Part shown: one piece after another, positions 1,194 to 19,129 of the stretch
Position numbering within the stretch: position 1 is the first letter of the stretch
Layout of the letters: each line of letters opens with the position of its first letter
The notes under the pieces: generated by a model
Database searches by the model: none
Told to the model about the DNA's origin: nothing
What the model saw: the letters and a program-made list of their open reading frames with translations, nothing else
Made by a program: the position numbers and the translations under genes
Assembly (NCBI RefSeq): GCF_900091315.1
Contig: NZ_FLSP01000005.1
Location: forward strand, 1 to 64,000
Source of the DNA: Streptomyces sp. DI166
GTDB lineage: Bacteria > Actinomycetota > Actinomycetes > Streptomycetales > Streptomycetaceae
DNA length: 64,000 bases
Reading direction: 5' to 3'

Positions 1194-2264
1194 ATGAACG
1201 AGAGCCTGTCCTTCGTCGACTCCTCCGGTATGCCCGAACGGGTCCGGGTGCTCGACTACGGCGTCGACGAACAGCCCGCCCCCGCCTCCGGTTTCCGTAC
1301 CCGGACCATCCGGCTGGAGGACGGGCGGCTGTTTCTGCAGCGGCGGCTGCTGCCCGCGTACACCACCCGCGCGGAGAGTGTGGACGCGCTGGAGGCCGAG
1401 ATCCGTGCCGGACTCACCCTGGTCCGCACCTTCATGGAGGTCAGCTATCCGCCCGAGTTCACCCGGCTGGCCGGGTACGGCATCGAGGTGGAGCAGCCGT
1501 TCCTGCTGCTCGACCTCCCGCGCGACGGGCGGACCCTGGCCGAACGGGCCGGTGCTCTGATGCTGTCGGCCGAGCAGAAGAAGTTCGAGTCCAGTCTGTT
1601 CCGTGCCCTGCGGCTGCTGCAGTGGGCGGGGCTGGTGCACCGGTCGATCAGCCCGGCGACGGTGCGCTGGGACGGCTCCCGGGTGCAGCTGACCAGTTTC
1701 GGCAGCGCCGACCGGGAGGGCCGTCCGCGGCAGCGGATGGGGTCCCTGCCGTGGGCGCCGCCCGAGCAGCGCGAGGGAGTCGGCACGAACGACCACCGCG
1801 ACGACATCTGGAGCGCCGGTCAGCTCGTGTACTTCGTCGCCCACGCCCGGGAACCGAGCGGCACCCGGATGCCACCAGTCGCCGGGCCCGTACGGGACGA
1901 ACTGCTCAAGGACGTGTTCGCCGAACGGGCCGAGCAGCGGCCGGACGCGCGGACGATGCTGCGCCGCATCGCCGCCCCGGACCCCTGGGATGACCTCGGC
2001 CGCCCCTCGGACCCTCTGTCGACGGGACGGGCCCGGTTCGCCGAACTCCTCGCCGACAAGGGGCCGTCGGCGTGGCCGGTGGCACCGGCGGGGGTGTGGG
2101 GCGAACCGGAACAGCCGGACCACGCGGCGCCCGAGCCGGATGTCCGGCCGGACGAACGGGGCGGCCCGTACGAGCAGTTGGGCAGTGGCTGGCCACGGCG
2201 CCGGGGGCGATCCGGGCCGGGGCGCAGGGGATTCGGTGGCCGTAGGGCGGGAGAAGGCGGATAG
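1194..2264 (+). CDS. Protein kinase-like protein, predicted pseudokinase
   Basis: A 356-residue protein; I chose the ATG at 1194 because the kinase-like fold begins there and the long upstream extension overlaps the previous gene. Kinase landmarks are recognisable but broken. The catalytic loop reads HRS (149-151) instead of HRD, the DFG motif reads SFG (168-170), and no Gly-rich loop is visible. The APE-like APPEQ (188-192) and DDIWSAG (203-209) segments are kept. The C-terminal 90 residues are Pro/Arg/Gly-rich and probably disordered. Loss of both catalytic Asp residues predicts a scaffold or ligand-binding pseudokinase. Its stop codon overlaps the GTG start of the GTPase gene by one base, so the two are translationally coupled. 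Confidence 0.8.
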   Translation: MNESLSFVDSSGMPERVRVLDYGVDEQPAPASGFRTRTIRLEDGRLFLQRRLLPAYTTRAESVDALEAEIRAGLTLVRTFMEVSYPPEFTRLAGYGIEVEQPFLLLDLPRDGRTLAERAGALMLSAEQKKFESSLFRALRLLQWAGLVHRSISPATVRWDGSRVQLTSFGSADREGRPRQRMGSLPWAPPEQREGVGTNDHRDDIWSAGQLVYFVAHAREPSGTRMPPVAGPVRDELLKDVFAERAEQRPDARTMLRRIAAPDPWDDLGRPSDPLSTGRARFAELLADKGPSAWPVAPAGVWGEPEQPDHAAPEPDVRPDERGGPYEQLGSGWPRRRGRSGPGRRGFGGRRAGEGG

Positions 2265-3416: not shown

Positions 3417-5273
3417 GTGACCGTCTCGAACGCCGGGATTCACCAGGTGGTGTGCGCCTACCAACCCGACAATCCCTCCCACAACAAGGGGTTCGGCCCG
3501 GTGGCGTCGTCCCTGGCCATGGCGCAGGAAGTGAGCCTCTTCCAGCTCGCGAGTGCCGTTCTGCGTCCTCCCGGCGACGCCGTCGGGAACTCGATCGCCT
3601 ACGATCGGCTCTCCTCCCGGCAGGACGTCATCGTGCGGCGGGTCATGACGATCGACCACCTGCAGCGGGAGAACCTCCTCAGCCACGCCCTCGTCGCCGA
3701 GCCCGGCCGGTTCACCGCGGAATGGGCCTTGGGCCTGGAGGAGTCCGACTGGCCGCTCGGGGACGACTTCGCTCGTGTCGAACTGGGCCAGCGTCTTGAC
3801 CGGCCCGACCCGACCGAGCTGGAACGCCGGTGCCGGGAGGGCGCGGACCGGCTCCGGGAGACCGGTCGAGGGTCGGCCCTCACCGAGGGGCTGTGCTATC
3901 TGACGACGTGGCTGCTGTCCCGTCCCAGGGGCAGGTTCTCCATCGACTCGTCCCTCGTCGCCGGGGCACCACGCGCCGCACTGCTCGCCCTCGTGGACAT
4001 GCTCTCCCCGGTGCTGCCCGGCCGTTGGACGTTCTCCACCTTGGAATCCGTCGAATCCGATGCCTACCGCCTGATCGTGATGCCCAAGTGGCCCCTCCCC
4101 GGCAGTCGCGAGTACGGCCGACTGCGCCTCGGGGGCCGGCTCGCGCCCGACGGTCCGGCGCACGAAGCCGCGTCGCTGCTGGTGATGCGCTACCAGACCC
4201 ATGGGTTGCCGGGGCTGGACCTCCTGCGCGCCCAGCCGGGCTGGGACGGGATGACCGCGGCAGGCCGTGCCGAGAGGCTGCGCGACCTCCTGGCCCGCCA
4301 CGCCGGAACCGCACCCCACCGCGCACTGCCCGCGGGGCCGGCCCCGGATCCATCGGAGACGACGGAGGACACGCGCGAAACGCAAGAGACGCAAGAGACG
4401 CCGCAAGCAGCGGAAGAGGGCTCCGAGGAGCATGACGAACACCCCGCACCCGCCGAGCAGGAGAGGGACCCGGACTTCGAGCGTGCGGAAGAGCCGGACC
4501 CCGTGGAGCCACATCGCTCGGCGGCGCTCGATCCGCCACCGGCGGAATTCGTACTCTCCCCGAGCGGCGAGGATTTCTTCGCCGACGCGGACGCCGAGCG
4601 GCGCGACCGGGAGGCCGCAGCGCTCGTCGAGAGGCTGCTCCGGGCGCACAGCGACGAGGAGGGGATGGAACTGCTGCGAGAGGTGTCGAGCCGGGCCCCG
4701 CTGTGGAACGGGTCGCAGACTGTGATCGCGTGTCTTACCGCGATCCGCTACCGGCTCGGACTGCGCGGAACCGGGCGCCGCCCGGAGTTCCGGTACAACC
4801 CGCAGCACCTGTTCGACCTGCTGATCCGCCCCGCCCTGCGCCAGGAGAAGGCGGCTCGCGACTGGGCCTGGTTCGTCCGTCAGCAGCACACCGTCTTCTC
4901 CACCGACCCGCTGCGTTCGGTAATGCGGCAGATGCTCGACCAGGCGGAGCGTGGGGAACTCGACGTTCACCACTCCTTCTTCGACGTGCTGGGTCCCTGG
5001 GCCGCTCGCATCGCCCTGCGCCTGGGGCCTTTGACGAAGGTGCCTCCCCTTCCCGACAGACCGCCGGAGATCCCTCCTCGACCCAGGCCCGGGTTGCTGC
5101 GCGGCAGGCGGGACAGGAAGGCTCAACGGCCCCGTCATGCGGGGGGGCCGGCACCGGCGGAGTCGAAGGGGAACACCGATGACTTCGTGCTCCTCGGCAA
5201 GATTCTGGTCTTCTTCGTCTGCTTCGTGCTCGCGGTCGTGATCTCCGGCGCGTTGCTGGACGTCCTGCCCTGA
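3417..5273 (+). CDS. GAP1-like GTPase-associated protein with C-terminal membrane anchor
   Basis: A 618-residue protein with a GTG start and a strong GGGAGG site 9 bp upstream, 4 bp after the GTPase stop. The N-terminal half is a compact alpha/beta region beginning with a HQVVCAYQ segment. Residues about 315-370 form a Glu/Asp/Pro-rich linker, and a second helical region follows. The last 30 residues hold one hydrophobic helix (VFFVCFVLAVVISGALL) with almost no residues after it, a tail anchor. I recall GAP1-type partners encoded beside conflict-system GTPases, and this fits by position, size and architecture, but I cannot verify the domain by search. Likely role: membrane-tethered partner of the GTPase. 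Confidence 0.6.
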   Translation: MTVSNAGIHQVVCAYQPDNPSHNKGFGPVASSLAMAQEVSLFQLASAVLRPPGDAVGNSIAYDRLSSRQDVIVRRVMTIDHLQRENLLSHALVAEPGRFTAEWALGLEESDWPLGDDFARVELGQRLDRPDPTELERRCREGADRLRETGRGSALTEGLCYLTTWLLSRPRGRFSIDSSLVAGAPRAALLALVDMLSPVLPGRWTFSTLESVESDAYRLIVMPKWPLPGSREYGRLRLGGRLAPDGPAHEAASLLVMRYQTHGLPGLDLLRAQPGWDGMTAAGRAERLRDLLARHAGTAPHRALPAGPAPDPSETTEDTRETQETQETPQAAEEGSEEHDEHPAPAEQERDPDFERAEEPDPVEPHRSAALDPPPAEFVLSPSGEDFFADADAERRDREAAALVERLLRAHSDEEGMELLREVSSRAPLWNGSQTVIACLTAIRYRLGLRGTGRRPEFRYNPQHLFDLLIRPALRQEKAARDWAWFVRQQHTVFSTDPLRSVMRQMLDQAERGELDVHHSFFDVLGPWAARIALRLGPLTKVPPLPDRPPEIPPRPRPGLLRGRRDRKAQRPRHAGGPAPAESKGNTDDFVLLGKILVFFVCFVLAVVISGALLDVLP

Positions 5274-5334: not shown

Positions 5335-8300
5335 TCAGAGCACCCCGATGCCGAAGGTCTCGTCCTCGGGGATGTGGGTCAGCAGCCGGATGCGCGGCAC
5401 CCGCCACCCCCCGTCCCCCGGACGCGTGGCGAAGTTCTGCAGCCGCTCGGCGATCTGGTGTGCGGTTCGGCCGAAGGCGACGGCATGGTCGAGAGCCGCA
5501 CGGCGCCAACTGCCGTCCGGATCGGAGTCGACGGGCCCGGCGGCGAGCACGGCCGGAACATAGCCGAGCAGGTGCAACTGGAAGGCGAACAGGTCACGCA
5601 ATTGCGCGTCCGAGCCCTCCGAGGTGTCCTGCGGCAGCGCGTCCAGCACCACCAGGGGAGGCGGCTGCCTCCGTTCGGCGCACAGCATCCGTACGGCGCG
5701 GTCCACGTCCTCCGGGCGGATGGACCGGGCGCTGCCCGGCAGGCGCAGCGCCGCCCCCTGGTCGAACGGGCGCATCTCGCCGTGCAGGAGGAGCACGTCC
5801 ACGGGCCTGTCGTCCGCGATGTCGAGGGGCTCCCGGGAGAGCAGGAAGTCCTCCGTCGCCCGCCACACCAGGGCACCACCGGTCTCGTCCGAACGGGGTG
5901 CCGAGGGCTCGGGACCAGGACCGGGCGGGCTGCCCACGGCGTTGCCCCGGACGTCCACCTCGATCTGGGTGACCGGGCGTTCCTCGGCCGCGGCCCGTAC
6001 CGCCCGCCGCAGCCGGGCGGGTACTTCTCCGCGGGCCTCGCGTTGGTAGGCCGCCCACGCCCTGCGCCAGGACTCGTCCATCTTGCCGGTGGGCGGGTCC
6101 TGTCCCTCGTACCGGCCGAGCCGGCGCAGCGCGAACTGCAGGTTGCGGCAGCGGGCCTCCTCCAGCAGGGGGGTCTCCAGCAGTTCCGCCAGTGCGTCGG
6201 CCGGGACGCCGACATCGCCGCCGTCGCGGGCGGCGAGCAGGTGCCATACGGTGGGCACGTCGCTCTCCCTGGTGAGGCGGAGGAGTTCGGCGGCCTCCTC
6301 CACCGCCCTGCGCCGCTGACGGCCCCTGGTGTGCCTGCCCCGGGCGATCAGGTCGGCCGCGCGCAGCGTCAGCCGCTGCGAGGGTTCGTGGGCCTCCGCC
6401 ACGGGCAGGGGGTCCGGCGTCACCTCCGCCGGCAGCAGGCGGTGCAGGCGCAGCCAGGTTGCGTGCACCTGCCGGTTGTCCTTGCCGAGCCGGGCGGCGG
6501 CGGTGCGCATCGCGGTGATCGCCTGGGGGCTGCCGCCGAGCAGGAGTGTGCGCAGTTCCGCCGTCCACAGGGCGTGCAGGCCGACCGCCCGGTCGGTCTC
6601 GCCGGGTTCGGTCCGGCGCTGGTGCAACAGTCGTTGGACAGCGGCGACGCGGGTCCTGTCCGTGAGCACGGGCTGCTCGGCGACGGTCGCGTACAGCCTC
6701 ACCTGCTCCGCGAGCAGCATCAGACGCCGGTTCGTGCCGGGGACGGACCGCCCCGCCGTGGTGATGGTCGCGACGTGGTCCCTGATCTCGTGCACGGGGG
6801 CGCACACGAGCGCGTGTAGGCCGTAGCACAGCCATTCGGCCGCGGTGGGCGGGGTGCCGAGACGTCCTGGTGCGTCGCGCCGCGAGCGCAACTGGTCCGA
6901 CCAGCGGCGCAGTACCTCCTCGGCCTCCTCGCGGCGGCCCCGGCGGTACAGCAGCGCGCACTCGGCGCCGTTCATGTACGAGCCGGCCGGACCGCGCGCA
7001 TCCTCCCGCAGCGGCCGGGAGCGCGAGATCCACTGGTGCGCCCGTCCCAGGTCGCCGGCGGCGGACAGCGCCGTGGTGACGCGGAGCACCATCACCGACA
7101 GGCGCTGTTCGTCGTCGCAGGCCCGGCCCATGGCCATACCGGCGTTGGTCTCGGCCTGTTCGAGTTCGAGCATCTGGGCGCAGGCGCGGGCCAGCACCAT
7201 CAAGGTCTCGAAGGCCAGCTCGGGCTCCATCTGTCCCGACACCGCGGGCAGGGTGACCTCGCGCAGTAGCTGCTCGGCCTCCTCCGCCTCGCCGACGAGC
7301 AGTTGTGACCTCGCCTGGAGCAGATCCGCCCGTAGCGCGTCCCGGCCGAAACCGGAACGGGTGGGCAGTTGAGCCGTCACCGGGAGCCCGGAGCGCAGCT
7401 CCGCCTCGGCCGCCATCAGACGCGTCCAGTCCTCCGCGGGGCCTGACGTCGTCTCCAGCCGACGCCGCCAGGCCCGTACCAGATCGGGCCGGTCCACCAG
7501 GTCCCAGTCCTGCATGGCGTAGCGGGCCACGAGCCCGGCCTGGGGGGCCTCGCGCGCGACGGCGGCTTCGAATACGTCGGTGAAGGCGCGGTCGGCCGCC
7601 GCATGGCTGTCGTGGGCGTGCTCCTTGGTGCGGCCGATCCTGACCCGGCAACTCGCCATCAGCAGCCGGGCGTCGGCGGTCCACAGGTGTTCCAGGGGGC
7701 CGACGGGACGGTCCGGGTCACGGTGCTGTGCACTGTCCAGCACGGCTTGAAGCAGGCCCTCGGCCTCATGCACCGGGGCCGGGCCCTCACGCAGTCCGGC
7801 GTGCAGTCGCAGGGCGGCGGTGATGATGTCCGCCCGTAGCTGGTCCGTGACAGGCCGCCGGTTCCCGTCGGTCATCCCGGCGCGGAGCCGCACCAGCTTC
7901 AGACAGCGCTCCACGTCGAACCAGCCGGGCCTGCCCCCGTACAGCACGGCGTGCAGTTCGCCGTAGGCGCGTTCCAACGCGATGTCGTACCAGAGCTGCA
8001 ACGGCATCACGCGCGGATCGGGCCGGCCCCGGCGCCCGCGGTCGTTGTCGGGGCACTCCAGGTCGGCGCTGAGCAGCCGGTCGGCGAGATCGATCACGGT
8101 CGCGAAGTCGCCTCGCTGCCAGGCCAGTGTGACCTGGCGGTGCCAGGTCCGCGCGACCTCTTCGAGGAAGTCCTCACGGTCGTCCCGCCGGTCCACGGCG
8201 GAGTGCAGCTGGTGGTAGACCTGCTCGGCGACCCACCCCGCCGTCTCCTTGGGGCTTCCCGCCCGACGGGCGAGACCGGCACAGCTCCGGGACGCGGACC

Positions 8301-10149
8301 GGTGGAACTCGCGCCAGGCGGGCTCCTCCTCGGAGCGCAGCCGCCGGGCCAGTTCCCGTCGCACGTTGATGTGGACGTCGAGCCGGGTGTCCGTGGCCCT
8401 GATCCACGCCGAGCGCTTGGCGTAGCCGATCAGCTGGTCCCACAGGGTTCTGGGATCCTCCAGCCCGCCCTCCCCGGCCTGCTCGCTGTGCGCGGACAGC
8501 AGGGGCACCAGCACGTTCAGGAAGTACTCGTAGGTGGGATGGCGGGCGACCGCGCAGTACTTGAGGGCGTGGCGGGCGACCTTGTCGTTGATGTAGTTCA
8601 GCTCGCGGTCGACGACGAACAGATAGAGCGACTTGCCCTCCGTCGGCAGCTCGTCGTCCGGGGAGCTGGCGAACAGGGCCAGGACGAGCGGGTTGAAGCC
8701 CGGGGAGCCCTCGATGTCCTGCTCGCAGGCCTCGACTATCGCCTGTGCCCGCCCGTCGGCCACACCGCGCAGCTTGAGGTAGCTGCGCGCCTCGTCGGCG
8801 GTGAAGGGCTGGAGGGCGAGCGCCCGCCACGGTACGCCCGAGAAGGCCTTGCGGAAGACGTCCAGTTCGGTGACGTCCGCCCGGCCGGAGAGCACCACCC
8901 GCAGCCAGGGCACCTCGCGGACCAGCTTGCTCAACATCTCCAGCAGGGGCGCCAGTTCCTCTTCCGGGGCCTGGAGGAGTTCGTCGGTGGCGTCCAGACA
9001 GAACAGGATCGGGGCGTCCGGGGCGATGTCGTTCAGAGCGTCGGCGAAGTCCTGGACCAGGGAAGCGGGCAGGGCAACGCCGTTCCACCGCCGCAAGGGG
9101 GTGTTGCCCGGCGGTTCGAACTCGCGGTCCAGTTCCCGTCGGCGGTGCCGGTGCCGGTTGAGGAACAGGCGCATGCGTCGGCACCGGCCCTCCCGGTCGA
9201 GTACCTCCGCCTGCTCCAGGAACCGCTCGGCGGCCTTGACCAGCAGGAGTCCCGGTAAGCCGAGCAGGCGCTCGGACACCATGGGCTGCGCGTCGAGGAC
9301 GGCGGAGAGTACCGGCGGGGACTGCTGGACACCGAACCGGGCGACCAGCCAGGCGAGTTGCGTGCTCTTTCCCATGCCACCACTTGCGTGCAGGTGGATG
9401 ACACGGGGCGGCCCAGGAGGGATTCCGTCCGCACCGGGCTGCGGTGGTGGCGTGCCCAGGACCGCCGATTCCAGCAGGCCCTCCACCTCGCGGCGCGCGA
9501 CGTAGTACCGGGTCTGTGCGAAGTACCCGTGCAGGCCTCGGCTCATCTCCAGTCGGTGTTCCGCCCGTTCACGGCGCTCCACCAGACCGGAGTGGAGCGC
9601 GTCCGCGGCGAAACTGCGCAGGTCGTCCGGCGCGACGGCCTGCGCGAGTTTGCGGCACACCTCGAAATCGGCGACGTTCTCGAACGCCGGATACCACTTG
9701 TCGAACACCTCGCCGGCTTCCCGGTGCCTGCCCGCGAGTACCAGGAGCCGCAGCCGCTCGACCATGGCGGTGTTTCCGTCGGCACCGGTCAGATGGGACG
9801 CCAGCCGGTCCGCCGTCTCGGTCATCGCGGCGGGCAGTCCCGCTTCCGTGGAGGACGCGCCGTCGTCCTTCCACCAGGCCGCCCAGGCGCCCTTGCGGAT
9901 CATGCCGTTGAGCTGGTACCACCCGGTCTCGGCGGGATACGCGGCAAGGACCCGCCGCAGGTCCTCGAACGAGTACTCCAGCCCGTCGGTGGCGACGGCG
10001 AAGGCGGGCTCGCTCAGGCAAGTCATCAGGCTGCACCGCTTGAGCGCCTCGTAACGCACCGGTTTGCTGTCCCGCGAGTCGCGGAAGTGTCGGAACGCCG
10101 TCTCGTATTCGTCGTCCCCGGCGGCGGTCACCCGTCCAGTCCGTTCCAT
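5335..10149 (-). CDS. Large STAND-type NTPase with helical repeats and degenerate CHAT-like C-terminus
   Basis: A 1,604-residue protein. I start it at the ATG at 10149 because a strong GGGGGGAGGG site precedes it; the frame stays open upstream but only over the previous gene. Residues 1-230 form a helical N-terminal module. The NTPase has canonical Walker A GGMGKST (257-263) and Walker B ILFCLDATDE (381-390), followed by a VVLSGR sensor strand, as in STAND ATPases. About 1,000 residues of helical, TPR-like repeats follow. The last 160 residues resemble a CHAT fold, with a VLLLHGEM strand and a VVLDALPQD strand where the catalytic Cys would be, but Cys is missing. It is the last gene of the four-gene operon and the only one with a textbook ATP site. 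Predicted role: ATP-driven sensor or assembly hub. Confidence 0.8.
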   Translation of the reverse strand: MERTGRVTAAGDDEYETAFRHFRDSRDSKPVRYEALKRCSLMTCLSEPAFAVATDGLEYSFEDLRRVLAAYPAETGWYQLNGMIRKGAWAAWWKDDGASSTEAGLPAAMTETADRLASHLTGADGNTAMVERLRLLVLAGRHREAGEVFDKWYPAFENVADFEVCRKLAQAVAPDDLRSFAADALHSGLVERRERAEHRLEMSRGLHGYFAQTRYYVARREVEGLLESAVLGTPPPQPGADGIPPGPPRVIHLHASGGMGKSTQLAWLVARFGVQQSPPVLSAVLDAQPMVSERLLGLPGLLLVKAAERFLEQAEVLDREGRCRRMRLFLNRHRHRRRELDREFEPPGNTPLRRWNGVALPASLVQDFADALNDIAPDAPILFCLDATDELLQAPEEELAPLLEMLSKLVREVPWLRVVLSGRADVTELDVFRKAFSGVPWRALALQPFTADEARSYLKLRGVADGRAQAIVEACEQDIEGSPGFNPLVLALFASSPDDELPTEGKSLYLFVVDRELNYINDKVARHALKYCAVARHPTYEYFLNVLVPLLSAHSEQAGEGGLEDPRTLWDQLIGYAKRSAWIRATDTRLDVHINVRRELARRLRSEEEPAWREFHRSASRSCAGLARRAGSPKETAGWVAEQVYHQLHSAVDRRDDREDFLEEVARTWHRQVTLAWQRGDFATVIDLADRLLSADLECPDNDRGRRGRPDPRVMPLQLWYDIALERAYGELHAVLYGGRPGWFDVERCLKLVRLRAGMTDGNRRPVTDQLRADIITAALRLHAGLREGPAPVHEAEGLLQAVLDSAQHRDPDRPVGPLEHLWTADARLLMASCRVRIGRTKEHAHDSHAAADRAFTDVFEAAVAREAPQAGLVARYAMQDWDLVDRPDLVRAWRRRLETTSGPAEDWTRLMAAEAELRSGLPVTAQLPTRSGFGRDALRADLLQARSQLLVGEAEEAEQLLREVTLPAVSGQMEPELAFETLMVLARACAQMLELEQAETNAGMAMGRACDDEQRLSVMVLRVTTALSAAGDLGRAHQWISRSRPLREDARGPAGSYMNGAECALLYRRGRREEAEEVLRRWSDQLRSRRDAPGRLGTPPTAAEWLCYGLHALVCAPVHEIRDHVATITTAGRSVPGTNRRLMLLAEQVRLYATVAEQPVLTDRTRVAAVQRLLHQRRTEPGETDRAVGLHALWTAELRTLLLGGSPQAITAMRTAAARLGKDNRQVHATWLRLHRLLPAEVTPDPLPVAEAHEPSQRLTLRAADLIARGRHTRGRQRRRAVEEAAELLRLTRESDVPTVWHLLAARDGGDVGVPADALAELLETPLLEEARCRNLQFALRRLGRYEGQDPPTGKMDESWRRAWAAYQREARGEVPARLRRAVRAAAEERPVTQIEVDVRGNAVGSPPGPGPEPSAPRSDETGGALVWRATEDFLLSREPLDIADDRPVDVLLLHGEMRPFDQGAALRLPGSARSIRPEDVDRAVRMLCAERRQPPPLVVLDALPQDTSEGSDAQLRDLFAFQLHLLGYVPAVLAAGPVDSDPDGSWRRAALDHAVAFGRTAHQIAERLQNFATRPGDGGWRVPRIRLLTHIPEDETFGIGVL

Positions 10150-10174
10150 GCGCCCTCCCCCCTGATTCCCCGGT

Positions 10175-12034
10175 TCAGCCGATCCTGGCGAGCGCGGTGT
10201 CGCACACGTCCTGCAGGAGTTGCGGGCCGAAGTCTTCCCCAAGCGTGTCGAGTTTCTCTCGCACCAGTGCGCGCCACTCCGGCGAGTCATGCCAGTCGTA
10301 ACCCATTCGTGTACCCAATTCCCGCAAGAGCGGCCCACCGTGGTGCGCCGGCCATCGCTGCAGCGTGATGTGATGACGTTCGGCGAAGAACCCCGCCAGC
10401 CGGTCCTCGGTCCGGTCGTGGTGGGGGTGTTTGGCGGTCGCCATGACGGTGATGGCGCCGTGGCTGTGCAGTGCGGCCTTGAACAGATGACTCACCAGGT
10501 ACCTGGCCTCGTCGTCGCTCAGCTTGTCGCTCTCCACGAAGTGGTCGAGAGCCAGTACGAGGTGGGTGCCCGGCGGAGCGGCCTTGACGATCAGTTCGAC
10601 CGCGGCCTCGACCAGTTCGTCCCGAATCGGACTGACCCCCATGTGAATGCCGCCGTCGCGCGGCTCGCGGGCGACCAGCTCCTCGACGGCGGCGAGTTCG
10701 CCGTCCAGGTCCCAGCCACCGTGGCGGCCGCTGTGCGTGCGTACGCTCTCGGCGATCCTGGCGACCGTGTCCAGCAGGAAGTCGTCGGGCTTGGGCATCT
10801 CGTCGGCCACCCTGAGGGGTTTGGTGCTGGGGCGGCTGGCGAAGTCCAGGTAGAGGGCGCGGGCGCCCGGCCGTTCCTCCCAGACGCGTAACGTCGACAG
10901 CAGGAACCAGGTGGTGCCGATCCTGTCGTCCGGCTCACCACCGGTCAGCACGATCAACTGCCGGACACCGGCGCCCTCCTCCAGTTGTTCCAGGGCCGTT
11001 CTGCGCTGCCCCACGCGGTCGGTGGCGCGCTCCAGGTTCCCGTACAGCGCGGGGAGCGACGGGCGCGCAGGCGCCGAAGGCTTCGGCAGTACGAGGTCGG
11101 GCCGGCAGTTGACCGTCAGGGCCGCGGAGCACTCGACCTTGGCCTCCGCCTCCGCGTCGGCCGACAGGTCGGCGGCGGTGGCGGACCGGACTGCCGCGTC
11201 GAGGCTCTCTCCGGCGATCAGCGCGCGGTAGAACGCGGTCAGCGACGCGCACAGATCATGGTGGGCGTCCGGTTCCGGTCCGGGCGTCAGGGACACCACG
11301 GCGCGGACCGGCATGACGGCGTCCGCTTGTGCAAAGGGTTGCAGCAGTTCGTGTGCCTCGACCTGGGCCCCGTCGCTGCTGGAGACCACCAGCCGGACGG
11401 AGGAGAGGTTGACACCGCCGGGCACCCCCTGGTCGAAGAGGGTACGCGCGGTGTCTCCCGCCAGATGGAGCACGTGCGGCTTGCTGGCCTTCACGGTCCG
11501 GGCGAGCGCACCGTGACTCACTGGGCCTGGGAGCACCTCGACCTCCCAACGATCGGCGTGCGCGTGCACCGCGGCATGAACCGCGACGTCCTCGTGCCAC
11601 GGAGGATCGTCAACCGTTCCTCGTTCCAGGTGCGAATCCACCCCCACGACCAATACCCGTACCGGGAGATCCCCGAACGGCAGCCGCTCGTCCGGTTGGA
11701 ACGCGCGGGGGCCGACAGCGGTGCGCACCACGCTGGGCGCCGTCCGGCCCTCCCCGAGCGCCGTCTGTCGCGCCATCCCCTCCCAGTCCAACCGGCGCAG
11801 CTCCGGTTCGTGGAGCCGCAGCACCAACAGTCCTGCCTCGTCCTCGACCAGTCCCCGCACCTGTTCCCACAAGGCCTGAGGACCACCCGGGTCGGTCAGC
11901 GCCAGTGGCGGTTCAATCTCCACCGGCGTCCTGTGTTCCACACCGCTCTCCCGGATCAACGCCGTCTCGACGGCATAGGCCGCCCCGGACGGCATTCCGG
12001 CAGCCTTGATCCTCAGGTGGACGACGTGCGTCAT
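10175..12034 (-). CDS. Pseudo-CHAT / degenerate P-loop NTPase protein
   Basis: A 619-residue protein. Residues 1-310 read as a CHAT domain, with the strand PHVLHLAGD (186-194), a RLVVSSSDG strand and a C-terminal FYRALIAGESLDAAV helix. The position of the catalytic His is Asp194 and the Cys strand has Ser/Asp, so no protease activity is expected. Residues 355-619 are NTPase-like. The P-loop strand reads IVLTGGEPDDRIGTTW (361-376), without the Lys of GK[ST], while the Walker B LVLALDHF (492-499) and a sensor strand ITVMATAK are kept. Its stop lies 25 bp before the start of the large STAND gene and its start 40 bp after the preceding gene, so all are co-transcribed. Likely a structural subunit or bait paralogue. 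Confidence 0.75.
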   Translation of the reverse strand: MTHVVHLRIKAAGMPSGAAYAVETALIRESGVEHRTPVEIEPPLALTDPGGPQALWEQVRGLVEDEAGLLVLRLHEPELRRLDWEGMARQTALGEGRTAPSVVRTAVGPRAFQPDERLPFGDLPVRVLVVGVDSHLERGTVDDPPWHEDVAVHAAVHAHADRWEVEVLPGPVSHGALARTVKASKPHVLHLAGDTARTLFDQGVPGGVNLSSVRLVVSSSDGAQVEAHELLQPFAQADAVMPVRAVVSLTPGPEPDAHHDLCASLTAFYRALIAGESLDAAVRSATAADLSADAEAEAKVECSAALTVNCRPDLVLPKPSAPARPSLPALYGNLERATDRVGQRRTALEQLEEGAGVRQLIVLTGGEPDDRIGTTWFLLSTLRVWEERPGARALYLDFASRPSTKPLRVADEMPKPDDFLLDTVARIAESVRTHSGRHGGWDLDGELAAVEELVAREPRDGGIHMGVSPIRDELVEAAVELIVKAAPPGTHLVLALDHFVESDKLSDDEARYLVSHLFKAALHSHGAITVMATAKHPHHDRTEDRLAGFFAERHHITLQRWPAHHGGPLLRELGTRMGYDWHDSPEWRALVREKLDTLGEDFGPQLLQDVCDTALARIG

Positions 12035-12074
12035 TCACCCACCCCCCATAGTTCGTGCACTGTGTCGGCGGAGC

Positions 12075-15000
12075 CTACGAATCCCCCCGCAGGTCCCCGA
12101 ACCCCCGCTCCACCTCGCTGTCAGCGGCGAGTTTGCGCAGCAGGCCCCGTGGGTCCAGCGCCCCGGGCACCGGCGCCCCTCCTCTCCCCGAAAGGTCTTC
12201 CTGGACGCGTCCGCACAGCTCGTCCACGGTCGCCGGGAGCACCCCCCGCTCCGAACGGCTCCGCTGCCACCGCGCACGGTCCGAGTCACGCTCCGCCAGG
12301 ATGTGCGCTCCGGTGAGCCGGCCCACCAGGGTCGCGTACATGTGGTGTGCGTGCGTACTGCGCAGCAAACTCTCGTGCTCGCAGGCGAGTTGGTCGTCGC
12401 CGATACGCCGGTGGCAGGCACCGATGTCCATCGGTGTGCCCTGGGCGTAGAGCAGTCTCAGTGCTTTCAGTTCGTAGTCCCTCGCTGTCTTCATGGCGCC
12501 GTGTCCCGCCAGGCGGCCGTTCGCCTCGGTCAGTTGGGTGGCCTGCTGCCGTTTGATGCGGGCGCGGGCCACATCGGTCATGGCTTGGACGATGACGTCC
12601 CCGGAGTGTTCGACCGCGCTGAGGCAGCCGACCAGTTCGCCGTCGCACTCCTCCAGCACGTGCCAGTTGCCGTTCTCCAGGCGTGGGTCCAGTCCGAGCA
12701 GACAGCCCTCCACGGCGTGCAGATGGCCCTCGATCGGGTCGGGGCCCACCAAGTCCAGGTACTGCCCCAGCCGTTCGTGGTCCGCCCGGGCCAGCTCCAG
12801 ATGGCGGGCGCGGTCGGCGGAGCCCTTGGGCGCGGCGTCGGCGAGGAGGACGTGGGTGTCGCGTCTTATGGTGAACAGCTTGCGGCGGAGTATCTCCCCG
12901 CCGGCCCAGCGGTGGTGGACCGCGTCGCGGAAGCGGACATCGGCGAGTGTCTCGAAGGCGGTCTCCATGCGGTGCAGCGCGTCGGGCAGCTCGCCCCTGT
13001 CGACCATCACTCGCAGCAGTTCCACCTCGACCGCGTCGGCCACCAGGGGGGTCGTGCCGTCCGCGTCGCAGAACCGCAGGTAGTCCTCGGCCACTTCCCG
13101 GGCGTCGGTCAGTCTTCCGGTGTCCCTGAGTCCGCTGAGGATTCCGGCGCTCATGGCCATGGCCAGCGGCGAGTTGTCCACGACGGGGTCGCCCGGCCCC
13201 TTTCCGAGGAGGGCGGACAGGCCGGGTCGTCTGTTCTCGTCGATGGCCTTGAACACACTGCTGAGGCGTTGGGCCATCTTGAACTGGTCGGAGTTCTTGT
13301 CCCTTATGTCGACGGTCACTCTCTCCAGTTTGCGCAGGGTGTCGCCGAGGCCGTCGCGGCCCCGGCGCGAGCGGGTCATCCGGACGGCGACGAAGTGCAG
13401 CCATGTCTCCCAGTCACTGGCGCGCTCCAGATAGGGCATCGCCTCGGGTATGAGCCGGTGGGCGTCCGCCGTTCTGCCGTGCGTCCGGTGCCGCAGGGCC
13501 GTCTTGACCCGGCCGGCCGTGTGGCGGATCGCGATCCGGTCCACCTCGGCGCGGAGCGAGCCGTCCAGGTCGAGCCAGGCCGCCTGGACGCGCCGTACCG
13601 CCTCGGCGACCGCGGGATGCATCCGTATCCTCATGTGCGTGCCGTTCGCGGGCAGGTCGATCAGGCAGAGACCGGCCAAGGACTCCAGCAGGAAGCGGAG
13701 TTCGTCCTCCTCCCCACGCGTCGACGCAACCTTGTCCGTGCCGCGCTCCGGGTGCGGTGACGGGCCGGCGAAGCTCTTGCAGCGGATGCGCAGCCCCGCC
13801 CATACCTCCGCCAGCAGGCCCGGCGCGAAGACATCGTCCGGGTGCAGCACCCGGTGCCGGGGGCTGAGCAAGGACAGTGCGAAAAGCAGCAGTTGGCGTG
13901 CATCGGTGCGGGGAACGCAGTTCAGCGCCTCCGCGGTCCACTCCTCGATCAGCCGCCAGTCCTCCGGAATGGGCTCGGTGTGGTCCTGCCCCAACTGGTC
14001 GCCGTCCACGGTCGCGAGATGCTGCAACCGCCGGGTTCCGTCCGGCTCCGCCGCCACGCCGTCGGCGAAGCGCAGCAGTCCGGGGTGCCCGTCGGCGCGT
14101 GCGAGCACGTTGTGCACCAGCCTGCGCTGCTCCTCCCCGGCCATGTCGCGGGCGGCGGTGGTGATGATCCGCCCGAGGTGCGGAAGGCTCTGGGCGTGCA
14201 GGAACGCCTCGGCGGGTGCCAGGAGGGGGACCTGGATGTCCGGCAGCCGACGCTGGTCGAGGTGGAGCGGCAGCGGGCTGGTGATCAGCAGCCGGAAGCC
14301 GGGCGCGGGGCTCTGTGTCATCGCGTCGATCAAGCGTGCCCAGCGCGGATCGAGCCAGGGGCCGGGCGACTGGGGACCGTGGCCGTCGGTGTCCGCCGTC
14401 CTCGCATCCCGGGGGCTGCGCGCGATCAGGTGTCCCACGTCGCGCAGGAAGACCAGGAAGTACTCGGTGTCGCTGTTGGTCAGGCGTTCCTCGACGTCGT
14501 TGCAGAACCGCTCGAAGGCGGTGTCGTCGGCCAGGAAGTCGTCCAGTTGCTCCTGGGCCGGCACGGGCTCCCCGCGGATCTCGAACGCCTGGCGGATCGC
14601 GGACTGCTCCAGCAGCAGGGCGACGAAGCCACGCAGGGCACCCCATGGGGTGGGCTCCGCCGGTCTGCCCTTGAGCGGGTACCACACGACATGCCGGTAG
14701 CGGTGGGCGCCGTACTGGCTGATCAGCTCGCGTGCGCAGGCCTCCTTGCCGACGCCCGTCATGCCGTGCAGGACGGCGCCGTTGGCCTCGCCGCCGGTGA
14801 GCCGGGCGAAGATCTCGCTGGCCCGCCACATCGGGTCATGGTGGCCGATGAGGCTGGACGGCCGGTGACCCATGGTCGGCGGATCGGGCCTGAGGAGCGG
14901 CGGAGGCTCCACAACCAGACCGCAGGCGTCGGCGCCGTAGAGAACGGGTGCGGCGAGATCGAGTGTCTTCGGTGTCAGGCACTCCCTGAGTGCCGCGCCC

Positions 15001-16136
15001 ACCGCCCGGGGCAGCGTCCAGCCCTGCGCGAGCAGGTTCTCGTACACCTTGGTGAGGAAGGCGACCGCGGCCTGGTCGCCGATCCGGTGCCGGAAGGCGA
15101 GCACGGGGCAGCCCAGGTGCCGGGCCAGTTCGACTGCGAGCCCGTCGCCGGTCGGGGCGGGTGTCGTCGTCGGGGATTCCGGCGTGCGGTGCGAGGGGAT
15201 GCGGAACATCTCCAACTGGTCCGCGATGGAGGGGCTGCTGGCCGGTCTCGTGGTGATGACGGTGAGCCGAAGACGCTGGTCGTTGTCGCCGGTCGCCAGC
15301 ATCCCCACCAGTTCGTCCGCGGTCAGGGGTGGCTTCGCGGTGGCGTCCCCTGTCTCGGAGGCCGACGACCATGCGCCGGGTGCTCCGCGGTCGGCCAGGT
15401 GCAGGATCATCTGCCAGCGGCCCGCGTCCCGCCGGTTGCCGGAGCGCTTGGCGCTCTGTACCTGCTCCTTCAGCTGATCGTGTGTCACGTGGTAGGAGAG
15501 CGTGCGTGTCGTGATGTCCAGGCCACCCCCGTCGGCGGCGATGTGGCGCACCTTGGCGAACACCTGTAACTGTTCGGCGTGCAGGTCCAGCGGTTCACCG
15601 GCCTTGGTGCGGTTGAAGACCCCCACGAGATGCAGCGGGAGGCCGGCCCCTGCCCGGCGGGCGCGGCCGTCCTGGGCCGGGTGTCCCGCCTCCACGTCGT
15701 GGACGAAGGTGAGTTCGCGTGCCGCGAGGGTGATGCCCTGCTCGTCCGCCGCGAGGAGCAGGGGGTAGCGGAGCACTTCGCGTTCCGGGCCGTCCGGGTT
15801 CAGCCGGATCAGCACGGTCGATGGGCGGTTCAGGGGCAGCCTGTCCCAGACCTCCTGGGTGAGCACCGAGGTGCGCAGCCACTGTCCCAGCCGACGCAGC
15901 TGGTTGGCCTCCCCGACCTCGTCCAGCCTGGTACGGCGGATGAATCCGTGCGGGTCCGTGAGGAAGCCGTAGGTGCCGGACTGACTGTCCGCGCTCGCTC
16001 CAGCGGCCGGATCGACCGGGAACTCACCGGGCGCCCCCGCCCCGTCCCCACTGCTGATCCGCCACCGCCAGCTCGGACCGCCCCTGCCCCTGCTGAAGTC
16101 CAGAATCTCCAGTAGGGCGTCGTAATCCCCCGACAC
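12075..16136 (-). CDS. Pseudo-CHAT / STAND-like NTPase with long helical C-terminus
   Basis: About 1,353 residues from a GTG at 16136 that has an AGGGGGA site upstream. An ATG at 16166 is the main alternative, and the frame is open to 16274. Residues 90-400 align in order with the CHAT domain of the neighbouring gene, but the catalytic His position is Arg (HLADRG, 246-251) and no Cys sits in the LTVITTRPAS strand. The NTPase at 455-700 has Walker A GMTGVGKEA (458-466), where Lys is kept but Ser/Thr is Glu. It also has a Walker B-like YFLVFLRDV strand and a RLLITS sensor strand. The rest is alpha-helical repeat. It is 168 bp downstream of the active CHAT gene in the same orientation. Inference: a regulatory paralogue in a hetero-oligomer. 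Confidence 0.75.
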   Translation of the reverse strand: MSGDYDALLEILDFSRGRGGPSWRWRISSGDGAGAPGEFPVDPAAGASADSQSGTYGFLTDPHGFIRRTRLDEVGEANQLRRLGQWLRTSVLTQEVWDRLPLNRPSTVLIRLNPDGPEREVLRYPLLLAADEQGITLAARELTFVHDVEAGHPAQDGRARRAGAGLPLHLVGVFNRTKAGEPLDLHAEQLQVFAKVRHIAADGGGLDITTRTLSYHVTHDQLKEQVQSAKRSGNRRDAGRWQMILHLADRGAPGAWSSASETGDATAKPPLTADELVGMLATGDNDQRLRLTVITTRPASSPSIADQLEMFRIPSHRTPESPTTTPAPTGDGLAVELARHLGCPVLAFRHRIGDQAAVAFLTKVYENLLAQGWTLPRAVGAALRECLTPKTLDLAAPVLYGADACGLVVEPPPLLRPDPPTMGHRPSSLIGHHDPMWRASEIFARLTGGEANGAVLHGMTGVGKEACARELISQYGAHRYRHVVWYPLKGRPAEPTPWGALRGFVALLLEQSAIRQAFEIRGEPVPAQEQLDDFLADDTAFERFCNDVEERLTNSDTEYFLVFLRDVGHLIARSPRDARTADTDGHGPQSPGPWLDPRWARLIDAMTQSPAPGFRLLITSPLPLHLDQRRLPDIQVPLLAPAEAFLHAQSLPHLGRIITTAARDMAGEEQRRLVHNVLARADGHPGLLRFADGVAAEPDGTRRLQHLATVDGDQLGQDHTEPIPEDWRLIEEWTAEALNCVPRTDARQLLLFALSLLSPRHRVLHPDDVFAPGLLAEVWAGLRIRCKSFAGPSPHPERGTDKVASTRGEEDELRFLLESLAGLCLIDLPANGTHMRIRMHPAVAEAVRRVQAAWLDLDGSLRAEVDRIAIRHTAGRVKTALRHRTHGRTADAHRLIPEAMPYLERASDWETWLHFVAVRMTRSRRGRDGLGDTLRKLERVTVDIRDKNSDQFKMAQRLSSVFKAIDENRRPGLSALLGKGPGDPVVDNSPLAMAMSAGILSGLRDTGRLTDAREVAEDYLRFCDADGTTPLVADAVEVELLRVMVDRGELPDALHRMETAFETLADVRFRDAVHHRWAGGEILRRKLFTIRRDTHVLLADAAPKGSADRARHLELARADHERLGQYLDLVGPDPIEGHLHAVEGCLLGLDPRLENGNWHVLEECDGELVGCLSAVEHSGDVIVQAMTDVARARIKRQQATQLTEANGRLAGHGAMKTARDYELKALRLLYAQGTPMDIGACHRRIGDDQLACEHESLLRSTHAHHMYATLVGRLTGAHILAERDSDRARWQRSRSERGVLPATVDELCGRVQEDLSGRGGAPVPGALDPRGLLRKLAADSEVERGFGDLRGDS

Positions 16137-16304
16137 GTTCTCAGTCCCCCTAAGAACCCCACGCATATGCCAGTGCAGAGCAGAGTAGACCCATGCCGCC
16201 GCACGCGCCCTGTATCGGCGGAGAATTTCCCTCCCTTTTGACGACGTTCTTTCGAAGACGATCGCAGGGCACAACCGATCGAATAAGAATGCGAATTCTT
16301 TTTA

Positions 16305-18209
16305 TCAGTGTTCGCGGATCCAGTTCTCCAACTCCCGGACCGTCCCGGCATTGCTCTCCGCGTCCATCAGCAGGCCCGGCCGGCCGTGCGTACGGCGCAG
16401 CACCTTGTCCATCAGCACCCTGTTGCGCCGAGACCGCGCCAGCGCCCCGAGCCGGGGCAGGGTGTGGATGATCTGCGTCAGATCACGGACGTCCAGCGCC
16501 CGCAACTCCATGCGGGGCAGCGCGGCGGCGACGCCGGGCAACTCCGACCGGGAGGTCAGCAGAATTCTGCTCGGACCGTCCGCTCCGGCGAATTGCTCGA
16601 TCAAGTCGGCAAAACGGGGTTCCAGGCCGATCGCGCGGTCTGCGGCGTCGAGCACGAGGAGGAGGCGGAGACGGTGCCTCATCGATTTGTCGATCAATTC
16701 CTTCCAATGCGGCAGCGGAGACGGGACGCCGATCCCGGGCATCTGAACGGTCAAATTCGTCAGCAGATCTTCGAAGGGGTCCGCCCCAGGCCGACCGGCG
16801 GCCTCGCGCGGGGTGGGCCTCGGATGCCAGAGGATGACGTCGAACGCCTCGCGGTGATCGTGCGCGAGCAGCGACGCGCAGGTGGTCGCCCCCATGCCCT
16901 CCGGCCCATGCACCACCGCGCCGGTCAGTCCGCTCCCCGGGGCGAGCGCCGCGCTCGCCGCGGTCATTTCCCGCAGCCGCCCGACGAACGAACGCGGCCG
17001 TTCCGGAAGCCCGCCGACGGCGCGTACGGGCACACCTCGCAGGGGACCACGCGTCATCGGGCGACCGGGCAACCGAAGGGTCCGGGCGGCGGCACCGAAG
17101 AGCATGGGGGTCGCCGCGGCGAACAGGGGTGTCCGGCGTTCGGCGAGCCGGGCATCGGTGACCGAGTCGACCACGGCGTTGTTCAGGGCCTGCGGGAGTT
17201 CGTGGCCGAGGCGCAGCAGGTACCTGTACATGCGTACGGCTACGGCGCGGGCGAAGTCAGTGCTGACCGGGAACCGCATGGCGACAACGGCGCAGCCGAG
17301 ACGTTCGGCGACGGAGGCGGCGAGGGAGGTGAGGGCGGCGTCCTGCCCCGACGTGTCGCCGTTGTCCTCGTCGGCCACCCGGCTCCCCGACCAGCAGGCG
17401 GAGAGGAACAGCAGCCGGGTACGCCCCCGTGCCGGGGCCAGCAGGCGGAGAAGGTCGCGCGTGCCGACCTCGTCGGCCGTACCGTCGGCGTGTTCCAGGG
17501 CCAGGCTGCCCGGTAGGCCGTGCGCCACGACATGGATGACGTCCCAGCCGCCCGGCTCCCGCAGCATGCCGCTCAGAGTCCCGCGGCTCACCCCGAACTG
17601 CCTCGTGCGCAGTTCCATCGGGACGGAGCCCTCGCGTCCGCCGGCGGCCAGATCGAGCAACTCGGCGCGCAGGACGGTCCGGTGCGCGCCGAGGTCCACC
17701 GGTCGCTTGGTCCGCGGCAGGCTGAAGAGGGCGAGCACACGCAGGTGCGGCGGCGGGGGCGCCTCGTCGGCCCGCGAGGCATCCAGCCGCACACCCCGGA
17801 CGAACACCACCTGGTGCAAGGACAGCGGAAGACCGTCGACAAGCCCCAACTCCCACGGAAACATTTCTAAGTCACGTAATTCATCGGGCAGTTGAAACTC
17901 CACTACCACCGGCGCCAGCACTTGGAGGCGGTGCGCGATCCCGCGCAGGCCGGTTCGGGTGATCCAGTCGGCACAGGCGCGGACCGTCTCCTCCAGGGCC
18001 GCGCTGTCGGCCCCCGTCCGGCGTAACTCAGCGATCCGGGCAGGCAACTCGTACAGCGGCGTCAGCTCACCCGACGTGGCCGGCCGCACCTCGAAGAATT
18101 CGGCGCCCAAGCCCTCCGGGGGCGTCAGTGACCAGACCCAGTAGTCCGGACGGCCGTTCGCCGGGGCGAGATGGTAGTGCCGGATGGCGAGCACGGCGGA
18201 TCGTTTCAT
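16305..18209 (-). CDS. CHAT-domain cysteine protease fused to Walker A-defective NTPase
   Basis: A 634-residue protein, first gene of the minus-strand operon. The CHAT domain is complete. It has FPWELG (about 117-122), the catalytic His in HVVAHG (His230), the catalytic Cys in LFLSACWSG (Cys272) and the typical GCAVVAMRFPV and MYRYLLRLG segments. After a FVGRLREM linker comes a P-loop NTPase. Its Walker A reads GPEGMGATT, with Ala at about 441 replacing the essential Lys, while the Walker B LRLLLVLDAAD, the sensor RILLTSR and a GRPGLL motif are kept. So it is an intact protease with an ATPase that probably cannot hydrolyse. Leucine codons 111 and 114 are both TTA, which predicts dependence on the bldA tRNA. 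The ribosome site before the ATG is weak. Confidence 0.85.
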   Translation of the reverse strand: MKRSAVLAIRHYHLAPANGRPDYWVWSLTPPEGLGAEFFEVRPATSGELTPLYELPARIAELRRTGADSAALEETVRACADWITRTGLRGIAHRLQVLAPVVVEFQLPDELRDLEMFPWELGLVDGLPLSLHQVVFVRGVRLDASRADEAPPPPHLRVLALFSLPRTKRPVDLGAHRTVLRAELLDLAAGGREGSVPMELRTRQFGVSRGTLSGMLREPGGWDVIHVVAHGLPGSLALEHADGTADEVGTRDLLRLLAPARGRTRLLFLSACWSGSRVADEDNGDTSGQDAALTSLAASVAERLGCAVVAMRFPVSTDFARAVAVRMYRYLLRLGHELPQALNNAVVDSVTDARLAERRTPLFAAATPMLFGAAARTLRLPGRPMTRGPLRGVPVRAVGGLPERPRSFVGRLREMTAASAALAPGSGLTGAVVHGPEGMGATTCASLLAHDHREAFDVILWHPRPTPREAAGRPGADPFEDLLTNLTVQMPGIGVPSPLPHWKELIDKSMRHRLRLLLVLDAADRAIGLEPRFADLIEQFAGADGPSRILLTSRSELPGVAAALPRMELRALDVRDLTQIIHTLPRLGALARSRRNRVLMDKVLRRTHGRPGLLMDAESNAGTVRELENWIREH

Positions 18210-18346: not shown

Positions 18347-19129
18347 ATGTCCGACAGCCGATACCAGAAGTACATCGAGCACGTCCGGGGCGATCTGGCC
18401 ATGGAGCCCTCATGGCCGCCGTCCGCCGTGCGGGAACTCGGTGATGTGGGGGTCTTCCGGAAGGGGCACTTCGAACGCAAGGGCACGCTCAAGACGCTGT
18501 TCGGCCTGACCGTCAAACCCCGGCCGGTCCGGCGGAGCACCACGGTCTTCCACGGCGATTCCAAGGGCACGGTGCGCGTCCACCACAACTCGGCCATCGG
18601 CGCCGGGGCCGCGCTGGTCACCGCCGAGGGCTCGCTCGTCCTGGAGTTCGGCAAGGCGGACTCGGTGCTGTTCCACGCGACGGGATGCCGGACCAGGGAG
18701 ATCGACGGGATCGAGGACGTCGAGCGGCTGATGATGGAACTGCACGACAGGGGCGAATGGCCGCGCCGGCAGGTCGTGATCACCGAGGTCACGCATGCCG
18801 AGCGAACCACCGCCGTCATGAGCAGCAAGCGCAATGACCGCATGGCGCTGCGCGCCGCGGCGGATCCCATGGTCACCGGCCTCGATCTGCTCACCGCGTC
18901 CGGTGGTCTGCAGTGGGCGGGCGGCTCGGCGGCCAGCCTCCAGGTCCTGTCGGAGGGCCGGCTCACGCCTCTCTACCGGGCACGCGGTGTGGTCCGGCAT
19001 CTGTTCCGGGCCGACGAAGTCGGTTACCTGGACGACGGGGACGAGGGCGAGCCCGGGGGCGACGAGGCGGAGTGCTACGTGGACGAGGTGAGCTGTCTGG
19101 ACTTCGACGACCTCGACGACCTTCCCTGA
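18347..19129 (+). CDS. Unknown 260-residue protein with acidic tail, candidate effector (gasdermin-like?)
   Basis: The ATG start has a strong GGAGGGGG site. There is no signal peptide or transmembrane helix. The body (residues 25-222) is beta-rich, with an LGDVGVF...F-x-R-x-G-x-L segment (31-49) and alternating Gly/hydrophobic strands. A helix at about 121-135 is followed by a RQVVITEV strand (141-148) and a TPLYRARG segment (207-214). The last 40 residues are very acidic (Asp/Glu about half) and look like a detachable or inhibitory tail. The order of strands, helix, strand pair and short tail, next to an intact CHAT protease, recalls bacterial gasdermins, but the N-terminal Cys expected of many of them is absent. 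I do not claim the function. It is divergent from the CHAT operon and stops 23 bp from a convergent reductase gene. Confidence 0.7.
   Translation: MSDSRYQKYIEHVRGDLAMEPSWPPSAVRELGDVGVFRKGHFERKGTLKTLFGLTVKPRPVRRSTTVFHGDSKGTVRVHHNSAIGAGAALVTAEGSLVLEFGKADSVLFHATGCRTREIDGIEDVERLMMELHDRGEWPRRQVVITEVTHAERTTAVMSSKRNDRMALRAAADPMVTGLDLLTASGGLQWAGGSAASLQVLSEGRLTPLYRARGVVRHLFRADEVGYLDDGDEGEPGGDEAECYVDEVSCLDFDDLDDLP

What the first reader, a model, noticed from the sequence alone, without database searches (positions are those of the whole stretch)
5335..18209. Four CHAT-NTPase paralogues with complementary loss of active sites
In one minus-strand operon the protein at 16305-18209 has an intact CHAT dyad (His230, Cys272) but Ala for Lys in Walker A. 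The one at 5335-10149 has a perfect GGMGKST Walker A but a CHAT-like C-terminus without Cys. The two middle proteins have a CHAT His replaced by Arg or Asp and P-loops that lack Lys (10175-12034) or Ser/Thr (12075-16136). Such complementary decay suggests one hetero-oligomer in which ATP-driven sensing and proteolysis are separate subunits, an unusual design for a defence or cell-death system.
Basis: partly seen in the sequence, partly recalled or inferred. Interest (0 to 1): 0.88.

Follow-up and report, generated by a model that had tools for sequence, protein, structure and literature searches.

The report
Split protease-ATPase cell-death gene cassette
A Streptomyces gene set splits the jobs of protein cutter and ATP-powered sensor between neighbouring proteins, next to a gasdermin-like gene, so it may be a bacterial version of the machinery that makes infected animal cells burst.

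Summary
The split of active sites is real and mostly conserved, but not quite as first described. Strong orthologues of C occur in 4 of 392 Streptomyces genomes (window included), each with the whole cassette. In all four, A keeps its CHAT His/Cys dyad but has Ala for the Walker-A Lys; B is a pseudo-CHAT; C has lost both the CHAT dyad and the Walker-A Lys; D keeps intact NTPase motifs. Two corrections: B's damaged P-loop is private to the window (GVGKTT in 3 of 3 orthologues), and D's claimed CHAT-like C-terminus is unsupported. Dead and live domains show similar dN/dS (0.23-0.42, one pairwise comparison), so the dead ones look maintained.

Two neighbours were missed. Divergent gene z is a probable gasdermin: its family profile ranks solved bacterial gasdermin 7n50 first in the PDB (E=0.014, weak), and outside the cassette a CHAT gene adjoins 7 of 9 intact homologues. 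The operon also abuts a tubulin / pseudokinase / double-GTPase operon.

Best reading: an inflammasome-like conflict system in which D senses, B and C scaffold, A cuts and z makes pores. Assembly, trigger and cleavage are inferred. New variant of a known kind.

The parts
18347..19129 (+). z, 260 aa, probable gasdermin (pore-forming effector) with an acidic C-terminal tail; divergent from A, 137 bp apart
   Evidence: Conserved in 4 of 4 cassettes; family profile ranks PDB 7n50 Gasdermin first (E=0.014); CHAT gene adjoins 7 of 9 intact homologues outside the cassette
16305..18209 (-). A, CHAT protease with conserved His230/Cys272 and an NTPase domain with Ala for the Walker-A Lys
   Evidence: Pfam CHAT 1e-12, above cut-off; motifs in orthologues
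12075..16136 (-). B, pseudo-CHAT + STAND-like NTPase + about 650 aa C-terminal region; Walker A damaged only in the window
   Evidence: Paralogue of A; motifs and codons
10175..12034 (-). C, pseudo-CHAT and pseudo-NTPase
   Evidence: CHAT relation through intermediate L027 and broad profile; residues 321-619 align to AAA+/STAND chains
5335..10149 (-). D, NACHT/STAND-type NTPase with all motifs intact, a long middle region (weak TPR hits) and a conserved C-terminus of unknown fold
   Evidence: Sub-threshold NACHT match in 4 of 4 members; motifs
3417..5273 (+). x, protein downstream of the double-GTPase with a hydrophobic C-terminus; GAP1 by position only
   Evidence: Similar protein in 18 of 20 other double-GTPase loci; no Pfam GAP1 match
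2264..3412 (+). Double-GTPase (DO-GTPase2)
   Evidence: Pfam PF19993 30.9 bits, cut-off 27
1194..2264 (+). Kinase-like protein, probably inactive (HRS, SFG)
   Evidence: Sub-threshold Pkinase; motifs
1..1141 (+). y, C-terminal part only (contig starts inside it); tubulin-like gene lies on contig C127 of the same genome
   Evidence: Matches the C-terminal part of a longer protein in L035; tubulin 92% identical on C127

Best explanation
An inflammasome-like conflict (abortive-infection) cassette. SHOWN from sequence: A keeps a CHAT dyad while its Walker A is dead; D keeps all NTPase motifs tested; B and C are pseudo-enzymes kept under purifying selection; a gasdermin-like gene z is divergently linked; and the set abuts a tubulin / kinase-like / double-GTPase operon. 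INFERRED: D, sensing a trigger, binds ATP and assembles with B and C into a hetero-oligomer that docks A through its dead NTPase domain; this switches on A's CHAT dyad; A cuts the acidic C-terminal tail of z; the freed core forms membrane pores and kills the cell. The tubulin/double-GTPase core may set the threshold or the place of action. My odds for single steps: conserved split 0.95, z a gasdermin 0.75, A cuts z 0.65, one hetero-oligomer 0.5.
For: Same active-site pattern in four cassettes, with B's Walker A as the one exception. dN/dS window versus L031 0.31-0.42 in A, B, C domains and 0.23-0.37 in D. z: 7n50 Gasdermin top PDB hit with 6, 9 and 12 homologues. CHAT gene next to 7 of 9 intact z homologues outside the cassette, within about 2.5 kb in an eighth, in different gene orders. 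Literature passages: bacterial gasdermins are often encoded next to caspase-like proteases and freed by cutting a short C-terminal peptide. Co-occurrence: double-GTPase of at least 79% identity over nearly the whole query in exactly the 4 of 392 genomes with strong C.
Against: No structure of z. Gasdermin E-values are weak, absent with one sequence or the four orthologues (where an unrelated capsid chain led at 0.01). z has no Cys near its N-terminus, the usual palmitoylation site. No interaction or cleavage data. Only four cassettes. B's P-loop is altered in the window itself, so this copy could be weakened. A-D and z are absent from 20 of 20 other double-GTPase loci examined, so the core does not need them.
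Confidence: 0.5

Rival explanations
1. z is not a gasdermin but another CHAT partner (inhibitor, adaptor or other substrate). The cassette is then a CHAT system with a split sensor that is not pyroptosis-like.
For: Weak E-values; no gasdermin hit with z alone or its 4 orthologues; no Pfam, NCBIfam or PADLOC family (one sub-threshold beta-propeller match at 0.028).
Against: 7n50 is the top hit in three successive, partly overlapping profile searches, colinear over about 150 residues; length and CHAT linkage fit.
Confidence: 0.22
2. A, B, C and D do not form one machine: A with z is a complete protease-effector pair, while B, C and D are a separate sensor or regulator that merely shares the operon.
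For: z-CHAT pairs exist elsewhere without B-D-like genes noted next to them (not searched systematically).
Against: Order A-B-C-D kept in 4 of 4 cassettes with A and B paralogous; A's own NTPase is dead, so it presumably needs another energy source.
Confidence: 0.2
3. The lost residues are drift in decaying duplicate genes, without a division of labour.
For: B's P-loop is damaged only in the window; replacements at C's CHAT positions vary.
Against: Open frames in all four cassettes (in one genome D is split only by a contig end); dN/dS 0.23-0.42 for live and dead domains alike, one pair tested; the A, C and B-CHAT losses are shared at 49-70% identity.
Confidence: 0.06

Closest known systems
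Bacterial gasdermin systems, including CARD-NLR systems first described in Lysobacter enzymogenes (seen through passages of PMC13236601, PMC9079055, PMC9612521; the primary papers were seen only as references)
   Same: Caspase-like or trypsin-like protease beside a gasdermin; NLR-like ATPase in the same system; in the Lysobacter system the peptidase also carries an ATPase domain
   Different: Here the protease is a CHAT protein with a dead NTPase, accompanied by two pseudo-CHAT proteins; no CARD was sought; z is far from solved gasdermins; a tubulin/double-GTPase operon is linked
GAP1-N2 double-GTPase systems, actinobacterial tubulin theme (Kaur 2020, PMC7159879; passages and section 29 read)
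   Same: DO-GTPase2 above Pfam cut-off, Tubulin_2 gene in the operon, conserved core with variable partners
   Different: x matches no Pfam GAP1 model; FNIII not seen in y; the word CHAT has 0 occurrences in that text, which speaks of caspase-like peptidases
CHAT-gasdermin gene pairs (fungal HET-Q type pairs and bacterial pairs; PMC10989679 passages)
   Same: A CHAT protease gene next to a gasdermin gene; found here for z homologues in Embleya, S. avidinii and others
   Different: The window has three further CHAT/STAND-related genes with partitioned active sites
Apaf-1/caspase and inflammasome complexes (recalled)
   Same: STAND ATPase separate from the caspase-type protease; gasdermin output in inflammasomes
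   Different: Here the protease itself carries a dead STAND-like domain; homology of the whole is not shown

Membership tests
CHAT protease (PF12770) | Profile match of A | tested here: met
   1e-12, 48.5 bits versus cut-off 24
CHAT protease (PF12770) | His/Cys dyad in A | tested here: met
   5 of 5 sequences
CHAT protease (PF12770) | His/Cys dyad in B and C | tested here: not met
   Lost in 4 of 4 each; both are CHAT-related pseudo-enzymes
CHAT protease (PF12770) | CHAT fold in D's C-terminus | tested here: inconclusive
   11 of 100 shuffles reach its score; low-confidence model, best Z 3.3 to unrelated chains
STAND/NACHT NTPase | Walker A, Walker B, sensor-1 Arg and GxP in D | tested here: met
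   4 of 4; Pfam NACHT is sub-threshold, 0.0007
STAND/NACHT NTPase | Complete motif set in A, B, C | tested here: not met
   A lacks Walker-A Lys, B lacks first Walker-B Asp and sensor Arg, C lacks Walker-A Lys
Bacterial gasdermin (z) | Sequence relation to solved gasdermins | tested here: inconclusive
   7n50 top PDB hit, E=0.014; none with z alone or orthologues only
Bacterial gasdermin (z) | Neighbouring protease gene | tested here: met
   A in 4 of 4 cassettes; CHAT adjacent to 7 of 9 intact homologues elsewhere
Bacterial gasdermin (z) | N-terminal palmitoylated Cys (most, not all members) | tested here: not met
   No Cys in the first 100 residues of z (translation)
Bacterial gasdermin (z) | Fold, cleavage and pore formation | not testable with these tools
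GAP1-N2 double-GTPase system, tubulin theme | Double-GTPase | tested here: met
   PF19993 30.9 bits, cut-off 27
GAP1-N2 double-GTPase system, tubulin theme | Tubulin gene in the operon | tested here: met
   Tubulin_2 3.8e-71 in L035; also L037 and L124; own genome on another contig
GAP1-N2 double-GTPase system, tubulin theme | GAP1 protein | tested here: inconclusive
   x is in the right place but no Pfam match for x, its L035 orthologue or two more distant relatives
CARD-NLR gasdermin system | CARD domain | not tested
   No CARD-specific search was made

The most novel reading that the evidence does not exclude
A bacterial inflammasome-like machine in which a CHAT-STAND protein was duplicated and the copies specialised into one protease subunit (dead ATPase) and pseudo-enzyme scaffolds, driven by a separate intact NACHT-type ATPase, firing an unrecognised gasdermin family and wired to a tubulin/double-GTPase switch.
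Probability: 0.38. Interest if true: 0.87.

Novelty: new variant of a known kind. Interest (0 to 1): 0.72.

Why it matters
If right, it is a natural case where protease, ATPase and scaffold of a cell-death complex are separated onto neighbouring, partly paralogous subunits, so each function can be removed by one mutation without touching the others. It would extend gasdermins to a divergent family, found here in Streptomycetaceae, a Mesorhizobium and a Gemmatirosa, that the profile libraries used here do not name, and it would link two groups of predicted conflict systems (tubulin/double-GTPase and CHAT/gasdermin).

Tried and rejected
D's C-terminus as CHAT: Pfam on the C-terminal piece and whole protein, profile comparison, model and fold comparison (best Z 3.3, ribosomal chain) gave no support. 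Direct hhalign of the shallow alignments found no C-A, C-B, A-D, B-D or C-D relation. With the first CHAT profile of 30 sequences C scored only 23.3 (hhalign probability 2.1%) against 17.1 reversed; the broader profile gave 45.1 (probability 83%), and that profile included A's sequences, so the A and B controls are partly circular. C itself was not in it.

Wider search for C: 396 phylum genomes gave the own genome only; 293 order genomes gave own and G291 as strong matches. Weak C hits G398, G327, G574 and G472 translated as low-complexity frames and were dropped; G073 is the CHAT-like L027. P0001 found nothing in genome contigs.

Of 25 non-own genomes with a double-GTPase match, flanks of 20 were fetched; G087, G167, G001 and the weak partial hits G109 and G026 were left out. 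For z, the fragment in G040, the weak matches G013 and G456 and all matches weaker than G040 were not counted. The Gemmatirosa surroundings were tested only with my own CHAT HMM, which also missed the Pfam-confirmed CHAT genes of G352 and Mesorhizobium, so that absence is weak. A Ruegeria CHAT/ATPase neighbour is not z-like. PDB profile searches with A, B and D gave no match at their limits. No z relative in the phage collection (one query). No tRNA or consensus promoter signal. Paper searches listed no description of this cassette that I recognised; only listings were seen apart from the six papers whose passages were opened.
Full report
What was checked. The window is from a Streptomyces genome (relatives named; own genome G000, contig 5). 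Four minus-strand genes lie close together: A 16305-18209, B 12075-16136, C 10175-12034, D 5335-10149, with gaps of 168, 40 and 25 bp. Pfam finds CHAT in A above its cut-off, sub-threshold AAA_16 in B and sub-threshold NACHT in D; C matches nothing.

Orthologues. In 392 Streptomyces genomes C has strong matches in 4, the window's included (G000, G406, G291, G245), and weak ones in 3 more. All three relatives carry A-B-C-D in the same order plus the divergent gene z. In G245 a contig ends inside D, and another contig starts with the rest of D followed by the convergent operon. Of nine window genes beyond z (19153-36537) none has an orthologue in the stretches fetched beside the other cassettes; the one match was a 35% IclR relative. 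So the cassette appears to sit at different chromosomal places.

Active sites (codons; C alignment). A: CHAT His and Cys in 5 of 5; Walker A has Ala for Lys in 4 of 4; Walker-B Asp and sensor Arg kept. B: His->Arg and Cys->Arg in 4 of 4; Walker A GVGKTT in the 3 orthologues but GVGKEA in the window; first Walker-B Asp and sensor Arg lost in 4 of 4. C: His position D, S, E, D; aligned Cys position D, H, A, E (L031 has a Cys one place earlier); no Walker-A Lys in 4 of 4; Walker-B Asp kept. D: GGMGKST, LDxxDE and SGR in 4 of 4. The division 'A cuts, D hydrolyses' is therefore conserved, B's P-loop loss is private to the window strain, and C lacks both.

Are they CHAT and NTPase? A and B align over about 600 columns (hhalign E 2.7e-38). 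C is linked to CHAT in two ways. A CHAT-like domain at the chromosome ends of G073 (L027) hits both Pfam-recognised CHAT proteins and C itself (E 2.2e-4). A broad CHAT profile scores C at 45.1, with 0 of 100 column shuffles reaching it; a narrower profile gave only 23.3 against 17.1 reversed. The AlphaFold model of C is poor (pLDDT 48.7), yet residues 321-619 align best to AAA+/STAND chains (ORC2 Z 12.6, Apaf-1 Z 11.9). D's C-terminal 200 residues are well conserved (76% to L031), but neither profile (11 of 100 shuffles reach its score) nor model (pLDDT 41, best Z 3.3) supports CHAT.

Not decay. Nei-Gojobori dN/dS between the window and L031, the only pair computed, is 0.31-0.42 for the domains of A, B and C and 0.23-0.37 for D; A's dead NTPase has 0.42 against 0.31 for its CHAT domain, and C's two dead domains 0.31-0.33.

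The neighbour z. This 260-residue protein with an acidic C-terminal tail matches no Pfam, NCBIfam or PADLOC family above cut-off. I guessed a gasdermin from its look and position before the PDB searches; the guess is written down only afterwards. One sequence or the 4 orthologues did not show it (the latter's best hit was a capsid chain at 0.01). Adding divergent homologues did: 7n50 (Gasdermin) was the only hit at E=0.62 with 6 sequences, top at 0.017 with 9 (next 1.2) and top at 0.014 with 12 (next 1.1), colinear over about 150 residues. Of 9 intact homologues outside the cassette, 7 have a CHAT gene next door (G001, G018, G438, G435, G352, Embleya, S. avidinii), Mesorhizobium has one about 2.5 kb and three genes away, and Gemmatirosa has none found by my HMM. 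Gene orders differ (CHAT before z, z before CHAT, divergent), so the pairing is not one inherited arrangement. Reviews describe such neighbours and activation by removal of a short C-terminal peptide (PMC9612521, PMC10989679, PMC9079055: passages).

The convergent operon. Orthologous loci show tubulin, y, kinase-like, double-GTPase and x in that order. In the window the contig starts inside y; the tubulin gene is on contig C127, 1.3 kb from its end. This corresponds to the actinobacterial tubulin theme of GAP1-N2 double-GTPase systems (PMC7159879: passages and section 29), though x matches no Pfam GAP1 model. In 20 other Streptomyces double-GTPase loci (of 25 non-own matches; stretches of 12-20 kb), kinase-like and y are present in 20, tubulin in 19, x in 18, and A-D or z in 0. 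A double-GTPase of at least 79% identity over nearly its whole length occurs in exactly the 4 of 392 genomes that have strong C; other matches are at 50% or less, apart from one of 63% over 65 residues. The kinase-like protein lacks HRD and DFG in the window.

Mechanism. The simplest reading is a cell-death system in which D is the ATP-driven sensor, B and C are scaffold pseudo-enzymes, A is the protease held through its dead NTPase, and z is the pore-forming effector released by cleavage. The parts list is shown; assembly, trigger, cleavage and pores are inferred. The nearest known systems are bacterial gasdermin operons with NLR-like ATPases (CARD-NLR; PMC13236601 passages), where the peptidase also carries an ATPase domain. 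What differs is the CHAT-related set with partitioned active sites and the tubulin/double-GTPase link. I rate it a new variant of a known kind.

Limits. Only four cassettes; z's assignment rests on a weak but specific profile match plus gene linkage, with no structure; no interaction data. In the window strain B's altered P-loop could mean a weakened copy.

Noticed in passing
window 12075-16136 (-), B residues 464-466: The window's B reads KEA where three orthologues read KTT in Walker A (codons GAG GCC against ACC ACC), a strain-specific change in an otherwise conserved P-loop.
   Followed up: partly
window 1194-2264 (+): The kinase-like protein has HRS and SFG for HRD and DFG; of 20 relatives in other double-GTPase loci only one (L065) reads HRD, so a pseudokinase seems usual here.
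   Followed up: partly
L027 and L028 (G073): A CHAT-like domain at the C-terminus of a long open frame lies near both ends of one linear chromosome (terminal repeat), with the catalytic His and Cys positions changed.
   Followed up: partly
L174 (Ruegeria pomeroyi megaplasmid): CHAT protein gene followed by an AAA family ATPase and a hypothetical protein with a weak sub-threshold HNH match; the last is not z-like.
   Followed up: partly
L161 (Mesorhizobium sp. AR10 plasmid): The z homologue and CHAT gene lie near a formylglycine-generating-enzyme-like (SUMF1) gene, a neighbour that a review lists for gasdermin loci.
   Followed up: no
window 16137-16180 (-): Residues just upstream of the chosen B start (HWHMRGVLRGTEN) are nearly identical in L032, so B may start further upstream (ORF).
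   Followed up: no
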